Shown one piece after another: positions 428 through 37,401 of a stretch of 48,106 nt of DNA. The stretch spans positions 1-48,106 of IMG/VR virus record IMGVR_UViG_3300033147_000207, one strand, 5' to 3'. The notes beneath the pieces are model-generated. The model was not told the origin of the DNA. It was given only the letters and a program-made list of their open reading frames with translations, and ran no database searches. Source of the DNA: a virus. Numbering within the stretch: position 1 is the first letter of the stretch; every line of letters starts with the position of its first letter. Both the position numbers and the translations under genes were made by a program.

Positions 428-448
428 CGTGGCTCCTGTTTCGTTTCG

Positions 449-485
449 CGTTGCGTGTTTCGCGTTGCGTTGCGTTGCGTTGCTC
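449..485. repeat. Simple GCGTT/GCGTTTC repeat upstream of the first early gene
   Basis: The plus strand reads as short tandem units related to TTTCGCGTTGCGT and GCGTT. It lies just upstream of the ribosome site of the gene at 143..427. Function is unknown; it may simply be slippage-prone sequence in a leader. Confidence 0.7.
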
Positions 486-526
486 ATGTCTCTAACTTAC
501 ATCCATCGTTTGAATCGTGCAAATTA

Positions 527-543
527 GAGCGCAAATCGAGCGC
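527..543. repeat. Short copy of the intergenic repeat core
   Basis: GAGCGCAAATCGAGCGC occurs here and inside both 38-bp repeats at 771-787 and 885-901. A degraded relative, ATCGAGCGCAAAATGAG, lies near 631-647. Confidence 0.85.
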
Positions 544-610
544 GCGGAACTCGTTTATTTGCAACAGTTACGCGCTATTCCCATTTTTCTGGAATTTAGT
601 TTCAACGTTT

Positions 611-631
611 TTCGAGCGTTTTTCGCTCGAA
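611..631. repeat. 8-bp inverted repeat
   Basis: TTCGAGCG and CGCTCGAA flank a five-T loop (619-623). A similar CGAGCG word is also the core of the nearby direct repeats, so this may be a protein-binding site rather than a terminator. Confidence 0.7.
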
Positions 632-731
632 TCGAGCGCAAAATGAGTCGAAAAACGGGCAACTACGGCAACTAAAGGACTTAGGCGCGGCGGCAAAGCC
701 CCGAGCGGAAGTCTCGTGCCTGCCGCAGTTA

Positions 732-746
732 GAGCGATCCTCGCTC
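732..746. repeat. 6-bp inverted repeat
   Basis: GAGCGA and TCGCTC flank a 3-base loop just ahead of the first 38-bp direct repeat. It is short, and function is unknown. Confidence 0.55.
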
Positions 747-750
747 AGAG

Positions 751-788
751 CGCGTAGGAGCGTCGAGGTTGAGCGCAAATCGAGCGCA
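751..788. repeat. 38-bp direct repeat, copy 1
   Basis: Begins CGCGTAGGAGCGTCGAGG and ends AATCGAGCGCA. It matches 865-902 at 37 of 38 positions (A759 versus G873). The copies are 114 bp apart, compatible with iterons or operators. Confidence 0.92.
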
Positions 789-864
789 TAGAATCACGCG
801 AGCGGGGCTAGAATCGAGCGTAGGGGCGAGCTGGGGCGCCCGCTCGACGCGATTTCAAGGGAAC

Positions 865-902
865 CGCGTAGGGGCGTCGAGGTTGAGCGCAAATCGAGCG
901 CA
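865..902. repeat. 38-bp direct repeat, copy 2
   Basis: Second copy of the repeat at 751-788, with a single difference. It lies in the non-coding region between the late and early blocks. Confidence 0.92.
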
Positions 903-36418: not shown

Positions 36419-36443
36419 GTGAACTCCGGTGGTGAGTTGGATG

Positions 36444-36473
36444 GACCGAGCCGAACACGGCTTCGGCTCGGTC
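36444..36473. terminator. 12-bp stem-loop in the gap after the replication initiator gene
   Basis: GACCGAGCCGAA (36444-36455) and TTCGGCTCGGTC (36462-36473) are perfect inverted repeats with a 6-base loop. The stem lies between the initiator stop (36592) and the next gene (36418). No T-run follows the stem; a run of six T (on the minus strand near 36576) precedes it. Attenuation or mRNA processing is plausible. The rest of this 173-bp gap shows nothing clear. Confidence 0.6.
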
Positions 36474-36591
36474 TACCCAGTGCTGCTTTCCCGGTCAGGG
36501 TCAACCAACCAAAACAGCAGCAGTTGCTTTTCAGTGTTGAAGTTTGCCCAAGGCCCCCCTTTATCATGGAAAAAATCGAAGCGTGCCGTGG

Positions 36592-37401
36592 TTATTGTGC
36601 AGTTTTGTCGCGGAGCTCGACGGGGATGCCGTCAACGCCCATTTCGTCAATGTCGGTCAGGATCTTCCGCATCTCCTTCGCTGAATACGTGGGGGCCGAG
36701 GAGTGTGATTTCAGGAACTCGTCGGGAAGTTCGTCGGTGTATCGCTCGTTGGCGAGGTAGCGGTGCGGGTCTTGAAAGTCGGCGCACCATTCGTTGCGCG
36801 CGGCTTTCCATTTGCGATATTGCATCCATCGGTGCACAGCGGCAACGATCTGCGCTGTCTTCGGTTCTAAGTGCATTGAACGCCAAACCGTCTCGGTCTT
36901 TCCGCGGTATCGTCGCCGTCCGGTCTCTCGCCACACCTCCCAGAACAAAACAAAACCCGGCATTGTTTTTATCTGCTCTACTCTACTCTGCTCTACTCTA
37001 CTGGCTCTAGAGTCGTCTAGAGTCACTCTAGAGCTAGTCTCTAGAGCTAGGTCCGTACTATCGGGGAACAAGTCATCTCGTGGCGGCATCGACAGTGCAG
37101 TGCGGTCGGCGTCATGCAACCATCCCCCACGCACCAGGCGGTCCAGGTGCAGCAACGATGTGGACCCGATACGGCCCGCGATCCATTTTTCATCGTTGGG
37201 GATGCGGTTGCTGAGTTGCCCCGCCAGAAGCCAGAGTTTTACCAAGTGAATTTGGTCACTTTCCGGCAATTGGTTGAAAGCATAGTCGTTTAGCAGCGCA
37301 GCGTACAGCTTGATCCACAGCATCGGCTGTGAGCCCGATTTCTGGTAGTGTTGGAACTTCTTGAAGTTGGTTACGGCTAGTAGTTTGGGTCGGGGTTGCA
37401 T
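36592..37401 (-). CDS. Replication initiator-like protein (269 aa)
   Basis: The N-terminal winged-helix domain (about 8-110) has the pattern seen in phage replication initiator/DnaD-like proteins: TNFKKFQHYQKSGSQPMLWI then KLYAALLNDYAFNQLPESDQ, and SNRIPNDEKWIAGRIG. The C-terminal domain (about 145-235) has WEVWRETGRRRYRGKTETVW, typical of the 'phage replication protein' tail. Between them lies a linker (about 117-142) with the 5-residue unit SRVEQ in tandem; its DNA is a repeat array, as in lambda O. A promoter lies 20 bp upstream of ATG 37401. No polymerase or helicase gene accompanies it, so it should recruit host proteins. Confidence 0.75.
   Translation of the reverse strand: MQPRPKLLAVTNFKKFQHYQKSGSQPMLWIKLYAALLNDYAFNQLPESDQIHLVKLWLLAGQLSNRIPNDEKWIAGRIGSTSLLHLDRLVRGGWLHDADRTALSMPPRDDLFPDSTDLALETSSRVTLDDSRASRVEQSRVEQIKTMPGFVLFWEVWRETGRRRYRGKTETVWRSMHLEPKTAQIVAAVHRWMQYRKWKAARNEWCADFQDPHRYLANERYTDELPDEFLKSHSSAPTYSAKEMRKILTDIDEMGVDGIPVELRDKTAQ
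36975..37050. repeat. Iteron-like repeat array inside the replication initiator gene
   Basis: Two 15-bp direct copies of GCTCTACTCTACT plus two more bases (36975-37004) are followed by four TCTAGA-centred palindromes starting at 37006, 37016, 37027 and 37040. CTCTAGAGCTAG occurs twice with a 13-bp period (37026-37037, 37039-37050). Spacings of 10, 11 and 13 bp place successive sites on about the same helix face. Position in the linker of the initiator gene recalls the lambda origin inside gene O. Confidence 0.75.

What the first reader, a model, noticed from the sequence alone, without database searches (positions are those of the whole stretch)
36972..37050. Iteron-like array embedded in the replication initiator gene
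Two 15-bp CTCTA-type repeats and four TCTAGA-centred palindromes spaced 10, 11 and 13 bp apart occur in the linker between the winged-helix and C-terminal domains. The array encodes the tandem peptide SRVEQ and lies in the same relative place as the lambda origin inside gene O. Helical phasing suggests cooperative binding by the initiator.
Basis: partly seen in the sequence, partly recalled or inferred. Interest (0 to 1): 0.72.

Follow-up and report, generated by a model that had tools for sequence, protein, structure and literature searches.

The report
Phage replication origin inside initiator gene
A phage gene for a replication-starting protein carries, in the stretch coding for its floppy linker, a two-part DNA repeat that distant relatives share in the same place and that most likely is the phage's replication origin, laid out as in phage lambda but made of different repeat units.

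Summary
In the reverse-strand gene 36592-37401 (269 aa), four TCTAGA palindromes (10, 11 and 13 bp apart) and a purine tract of AGAGY pentamers (two 15-bp repeats) fill 36972-37050. The record has one other TCTAGA. Synonymous recoding of the peptide never reproduced the array (0 of 200,000), and it is the most repetitive 79-nt stretch of the record.

It is two adjoining modules. Of 36 non-redundant relatives, 33 carry DNA repeats beyond what their peptide demands, mostly mid-gene: iterons with an 11-bp period (GCTAGC, GATATC or other cores), then a YAGAG-type purine tract. A search for five AGAGY pentamers found the tract in 15 initiator-like genes, mostly of other families; in 10, significant phage-specific repeats precede it. 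A permuted pentamer hit no initiator.

Best reading: an initiator-encoded origin of the lambda O / SPP1 oriL kind; the protein binds the palindromes and strands open at the purine tract and the AT-rich stretch beside it. Binding and replication are inferred. Embedded origins are known; 11-bp iterons plus a purine tract shared by unrelated initiators look like an undescribed variant. A repeat-rich intergenic region (437-900) remains a rival or second origin.

The parts
36592..37401 (-). Replication-initiator-like gene, 269 aa: N-terminal domain about aa 1-104, disordered linker about 105-145, helical C-terminal domain about 146-235
   Evidence: ORF, translation, phrog_26426, AlphaFold2 model with pLDDT 39-49 in the linker and above 90 in most of both domains
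37005..37046 (-). Iteron-like module: four TCTAGA-centred palindromes (three of them CTCTAGAG) spaced 10, 11 and 13 bp
   Evidence: family-wide iterons with 11-bp period at the same place
36972..37002 (-). Purine tract: about six AGAGY pentamers on the coding strand, encoding SRVEQSRVEQ
   Evidence: same tract in unrelated initiator genes
36941..37000 (.). AT-rich stretch next to and overlapping the purine tract (40% GC in a 60% GC record; among the four most AT-rich 60-nt spots)
   Evidence: candidate strand-opening element, inferred
437..900 (.). Rival or second origin candidate: intergenic, TTGCG pentamer run 443-483, most AT-rich 60-mer of the record at 553, five AATCGAGCG copies found nowhere else

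Best explanation
The array is the phage's replication origin, embedded in the linker-coding part of its own initiator gene. The N-terminal domain of the protein binds the helically phased TCTAGA palindromes (iterons) and builds a nucleoprotein complex. The complex opens the strands at the adjoining purine-rich AGAGY tract and AT-rich stretch. The C-terminal domain, on the flexible linker, brings in helicase or its loader. Shown here: the array, its DNA-level nature, its place in a disordered linker, and the same two-part layout in relatives and in other initiators. Inferred: binding, strand opening, helicase recruitment and origin activity.
For: Array cannot come from the peptide alone (0 of 200,000 recodings) and is the most repetitive spot of the record. 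In 36 non-redundant genes of the family, 33 carry DNA repeats beyond codon-shuffled versions of themselves (p <= 0.045; 31 of 34 without the window and L118, which were picked for their repeats), median position 0.49 of the gene. Just 5' of the purine tract the sequence repeats with lag 11 (z 8-9.5) and 22 (z 5-6), not at 10 or 12. 11 bp is not a multiple of 3, so these are not peptide repeats. Repeated 6-bp palindromes in 16 of 34 linkers, 4.1 expected. The AGAGY x5 tract lies mid-linker in 15 initiator-like genes, 10 of them with significant repeats just upstream (p <= 0.02); five AGAGY genes that are not initiators lack such repeats. All ten of these proteins scanned match PHROG replication families. 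Permuted pentamer AAGGY x5: 25 stretches, none in an initiator linker. Relatives are followed by DnaB or lambda P genes. Lambda has iterons and then an AT-rich, purine-leaning strand at the same place and in the same order (PMC7466680); SPP1 oriL lies inside initiator gene 38 (PMC6316719).
Against: No binding or replication data. Window spacing (10, 11, 13) is less regular than the 11-bp period of relatives, and the window protein is divergent (end branch 1.4). AT-richness beside the tract is not a family trait: mean GC downstream 0.47 against 0.45 for whole genes. No helicase or loader gene was recognised among the window proteins scanned. GC skew shows no turn here. The intergenic region 437-900 is also repeat- and AT-rich. 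Relatives share ancestry, so their repeats are not independent events.
Confidence: 0.75

Rival explanations
1. The repeats are by-products: a disordered, charged linker tolerates slippage, so simple repeats accumulate with no role at the DNA level.
For: The linker is disordered; many relatives have low-complexity peptides there such as ETETET or DRDIDRDKD. AGAGC runs also occur in non-coding DNA of bacterial genomes and in unrelated phage genes, so the motif can arise by slippage.
Against: 11-bp iterons are out of frame and encode different residues each time. Slippage gives contiguous short units, not palindromes 10-13 bp apart in two frames. AGAGY tracts in non-initiator genes lack upstream iterons and the control pentamer avoids initiators. 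Rare AGA codons are concentrated here.
Confidence: 0.12
2. The array is an operator or autoregulatory site at which the initiator or another phage protein represses or times transcription, not the origin.
For: Palindromic sites one helical turn apart also suit a repressor; initiator and binding site share a gene.
Against: It lies in the middle of a coding region in the window and in relatives, not at a promoter; it is paired with a purine tract in the order seen in lambda.
Confidence: 0.06
3. The origin of this phage is the intergenic region 437-900, and the gene array is a secondary or decayed site; or the phage has two origins, as SPP1 has oriL and oriR.
For: Second most repetitive spot of the record (score 44 against 48); most AT-rich 60-mer at 553; five AATCGAGCG copies at 534, 630, 778, 812 and 892 and nowhere else. 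SPP1 has two origins about 13 kb apart (PMC6316719).
Against: Its repeats share nothing with the gene array; repeats in a long intergenic region equally suit operators or a partition site (the record has a ParB-like gene); it was not compared with relatives.
Confidence: 0.15
4. The shared purine tract is a recombination joint that lets phages swap N- and C-terminal domains of initiators.
For: Relatives with similar N-terminal domains carry different C-terminal parts after the linker; the same AGAGY tract occurs in initiators with unrelated N-terminal domains.
Against: Does not explain the iterons, their 11-bp period or their change between clades; not exclusive of an origin role.
Confidence: 0.1

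Closest known systems
Phage lambda origin in gene O (lambdoid O-type origin)
   Same: Origin inside the initiator gene, iterons at 0.39-0.48 of its length; four iterons followed in the coding direction by an AT-rich strand-opening region whose coding strand is purine-leaning (0.69 purine, 0.24 GC) (PMC7466680)
   Different: Lambda iterons are 18 bp, spaced 20-24 bp; here hexamer palindromes 10-13 bp apart, 11 bp in most relatives. Lambda has an A-rich tract, here AGAGY/GAGACA-type purine repeats. No Pfam match of the window protein to Phage_rep_O
Bacillus phage SPP1 oriL in gene 38
   Same: Direct repeats bound by the initiator, inside the initiator gene, next to an AT-rich unwinding element; a second origin exists elsewhere (PMC6316719)
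   Different: Unit and spacing were not compared here; no sequence relation tested
phrog_26426 replication proteins (Vibrio phage phiV208 gp43 and IMG/VR relatives)
   Same: Same N-terminal domain, linker and embedded two-part array
   Different: Iteron core GCTAGC or GATATC in most relatives, TCTAGA in the window; N-terminal identity at most 47%

Membership tests
Origin embedded in a phage initiator gene (lambda O / SPP1 oriL kind) | Array of repeats inside the initiator gene, between DNA-binding and C-terminal domains | tested here: met
   Array at 0.43-0.53 of the gene, in the disordered linker aa 105-145
Origin embedded in a phage initiator gene (lambda O / SPP1 oriL kind) | Repeats exist at the DNA level, not as a peptide repeat | tested here: met
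   Two reading frames; 0 of 200,000 synonymous recodings; lag 11 and 22 in relatives
Origin embedded in a phage initiator gene (lambda O / SPP1 oriL kind) | Adjacent AT-rich unwinding element | tested here: inconclusive
   AT-rich 60 nt at 36941 (40% GC, among the four most AT-rich spots), but not AT-rich across relatives
Origin embedded in a phage initiator gene (lambda O / SPP1 oriL kind) | Initiator binds the repeats and replication starts there | not testable with these tools
   Needs footprinting, a plasmid assay and marker frequency
Lambda O protein family (Pfam PF04492) | Sequence match to Phage_rep_O | tested here: not met
   No Pfam family at E <= 0.1 for the window protein; only 2 of 36 aligned members match each of two PHROGs named O-like
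phrog_26426 replication proteins | Profile match of the N-terminal region | tested here: met
   E 1.2e-4 over residues 11-66; all 36 aligned members match
Winged-helix DNA-binding domain | Fold match to winged-helix structures | tested here: inconclusive
   Confident N-terminal model; Foldseek against PDB found nothing significant; VIA-align Z 4.9, rmsd 3.0 over 64 residues to part of methionine aminopeptidase 2, whose insert domain is winged-helix-like from my own knowledge
Initiator/helicase-loader replication module | Neighbouring helicase or loader gene | tested here: inconclusive
   Relatives are followed by DnaB or lambda P genes; none recognised among ten window proteins scanned with Pfam; not all window ORFs were scanned

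The most novel reading that the evidence does not exclude
The YAGAG-type purine tract is a transferable second half of embedded phage origins, used by initiators with unrelated DNA-binding domains and different iterons, because a common partner (strand-opening mechanics, host primase, or helicase loading on one strand) reads it. Phage origins of this kind would then be bipartite in general: a private address plus a shared opening or priming tract.
Probability: 0.3. Interest if true: 0.72.

Novelty: new variant of a known kind. Interest (0 to 1): 0.55.

Why it matters
If right, origins of many uncharacterised tailed phages can be read from sequence: find the initiator gene, then look in its linker for iterons with an 11-bp period followed by an AGAG-type purine tract. 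That predicts which DNA each initiator binds, gives ready plasmid replicons and makes the role of the purine tract directly testable. It also explains why so many phage initiators carry odd repeats such as SRVEQ or ETETET in their linkers: the DNA is under selection, not the peptide.

Tried and rejected
Close relatives: no DNA match in the phage collection, and protein-pattern searches with the window protein alone found none in viral or genome contigs or plasmids; an alignment query was needed. CTCTAGAG x3 in viral contigs found 12 stretches, none seen in an initiator linker, so this palindrome is not a shared signal. A codon-degenerate search for SRVEQSRVEQ found only two contigs, both Lin1244-type initiators using AGA, GTA, GAG and CAG codons: too few for a codon statistic. 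Solved structures by sequence: nothing meaningful. Foldseek against PDB: nothing significant. Lin1244-family relatives through L089 returned only itself; Phage_rep_O matched in 4 of 274 genomes, not pursued. Primase start sites: the strand opposite AGAGY carries CTG or CTA every 5 nt, which recalls DnaG start trinucleotides (from memory); no test was devised, left as an idea. GC skew: uninformative. In genome contigs most AGAGC runs are non-coding, so the motif alone is not diagnostic. Papers on iterons in phage initiators turned up lambda, Stx and SPP1 cases but no 11-bp or AGAG-type description in the held library; subscription reviews, such as Weigel and Seitz 2006, could not be read.

Full report
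What was checked. The window is a complete IMG/VR record of 48,106 bp, a tailed phage with portal, terminase and tape-measure genes. The gene at 36592-37401 on the minus strand encodes 269 aa.

More than chance. TCTAGA occurs five times in the record, four of them within 40 bp; CTCTAGAG occurs three times, all here. Recoding the same 28-residue peptide 200,000 times with the phage's own codon usage never reached the observed counts of TCTAGA, CTCTAGAG, TAGAG or AGAGY; even with uniform codons at most one recoding in 200,000 did. The palindromes lie in two reading frames. The 79-nt window scores highest of the whole record for repeated 6-mers (48), against a maximum of 18 in 20 simulated genomes; the next spot is 437 (score 44).

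Two modules. On the coding strand the order is: four palindromes (37046 down to 37005), then a pentamer tract AGAGT-AGAGC-AGAGT-AGAGT-AGAGC (37002 down to 36972), then an AT-rich stretch. In the tract T is replaced by C exactly at the two positions where T would create TAG. This is what a DNA pentamer under a coding constraint looks like.

Protein context. The protein matches phrog_26426 'replication protein' weakly (E 1.2e-4, residues 11-66), but every one of 36 aligned members matches that family. The AlphaFold2 model has two confident domains joined by a disordered segment of about residues 105-145, which is what the array encodes. Solved-structure matches are weak; BFVD matches include Gp04 putative replication protein of Iodobacter phage PhiPLPE. 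In relatives the next gene is often DnaB-like or lambda P. No such neighbour was recognised among the window proteins scanned.

Relatives. An alignment query whose only DNA pattern was the N-terminal motif [KT]N[WF]x[KDQ]FQH returned 80 loci, chosen without regard to repeats. With the window, Vibrio phage phiV208, one spring-water phage and one locus from the AGAGY search (L118, selected for its tract) added, they collapse to 36 non-redundant genes. In 33 of 36 (31 of 34 without the window and L118) the strongest local DNA repeat exceeds codon-shuffled versions of the same gene (p <= 0.045); the median position is 0.49 of the gene, and 86% lie between 0.38 and 0.66. The linker region is enriched for CTAGC/GCTAG, TAGAG and CAGAG beyond shuffles.

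The 11-bp period. In the 75 nt before the purine tract, self-match at lag 11 is 0.38 against 0.31 in shuffles (z 9.5; z 8.3 without the window), and at lag 22 z is 5.4-6.1, with nothing at 10 or 12. Other segments of the genes are near zero except one about 150-225 nt upstream (z 4.5), where GCTAGC copies also occur, so a second smaller cluster may exist in the N-terminal coding region. Cores differ by clade: GCTAGC in both halves of the tree, GATATC in a single group of six, TCTAGA in the window (class labels set by a simple motif rule). Clustering by descent is expected and does not by itself prove binding.

Other initiators. An exact 22-nt search with the window's tract hit four viral contigs, each in the mid-part of a different initiator-like gene. 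The wider search for five AGAGY pentamers gave 101 viral stretches. Among the non-redundant ORFs of at least 140 aa that carry it, 15 besides L118 are initiator-like by sequence or by layout; most belong to other families, though L148 and L172 also match phrog_26426, and some are related to each other (L110 and L113; L103 and L120). For 10 of the 15 the upstream 5-mer repeat score has p <= 0.02 against codon shuffles. The ten scanned against PHROGs all match replication initiation, primosomal or helicase-loader families; L008 and L089 are Lin1244_N and L114 is DUF1376. Five AGAGY genes of other kinds (methyltransferase- and PAPS-reductase-like) show no upstream repeats (p 0.15 to 0.91); a sixth, L149, has a simple CAGC-type repeat. 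The permuted pentamer AAGGY gave 25 stretches, none in an initiator linker. Because this set was selected for AGAGY, it shows that iterons accompany the tract, not how often initiators have the tract.

Mechanism. Lambda's origin lies in the middle of gene O: iterons bound by O, flanked by an AT-rich region needed for unwinding, and O proteins also interact with A-rich single strands (PMC7466680). [quoted passage not shown] The window array has the same place and order. I infer that the initiator binds the palindromes and opens the DNA at the purine/AT stretch, and that the C-terminal domain recruits helicase functions. What the purine tract adds is unknown; in relatives it is not AT-rich.

Rivals. 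Slippage in a tolerant linker may create pentamer runs but not out-of-frame iterons with an 11-bp period. An operator is possible but oddly placed. The intergenic region 437-900 has its own repeats and the most AT-rich 60-mer, and stays a serious rival or second origin. The purine tract may also serve as a recombination joint between swapped domains.

Verdict. Observation confirmed; interpretation partly supported and extended. The protein is not a member of the lambda O family by sequence, but the array most likely works like a lambda-type embedded origin. The novel elements are the iterons with an 11-bp period and the purine tract shared with unrelated initiators; I found no description of either in the papers searched, which is not proof that none exists.

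Noticed in passing
window 437-900: Long intergenic region with a TTGCG pentamer run, the most AT-rich 60-mer of the record and five AATCGAGCG copies (534, 630, 778, 812, 892) found nowhere else in the record; possible second origin, operator set or partition site.
   Followed up: partly
L200, L203, L222, L225 and many other genome-contig loci: Long (AGAGC)n runs in non-coding or short-ORF DNA of gut Firmicutes and other bacterial contigs, up to 65 units in Lactococcus chungangensis (L225); origin and role unknown.
   Followed up: no
L125, L137, L159, L169: (AGAGC)n runs inside otherwise conserved methyltransferase- and PAPS-reductase-like genes of phages, adding SRAEQ repeats.
   Followed up: no
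L011:1220-2278: The initiator relative carries what looks like an HNH endonuclease domain inserted between its N-terminal domain and the repeat-bearing linker (by eye from the sequence).
   Followed up: no
L089:8257-9132 (- strand): The 22-bp iterons of this Lin1244-type initiator contain TTATCCAC, which resembles a DnaA box.
   Followed up: no
relatives of the window gene, about 150-225 nt upstream of the purine tract: A second, weaker cluster with 11-bp period (GCTAGC copies) in the N-terminal coding region (lag-11 z 4.5).
   Followed up: partly
window 36438-36479: 18-bp inverted repeat with 6-nt loop (89% complementary) just downstream of the initiator gene, terminator-like.
   Followed up: no
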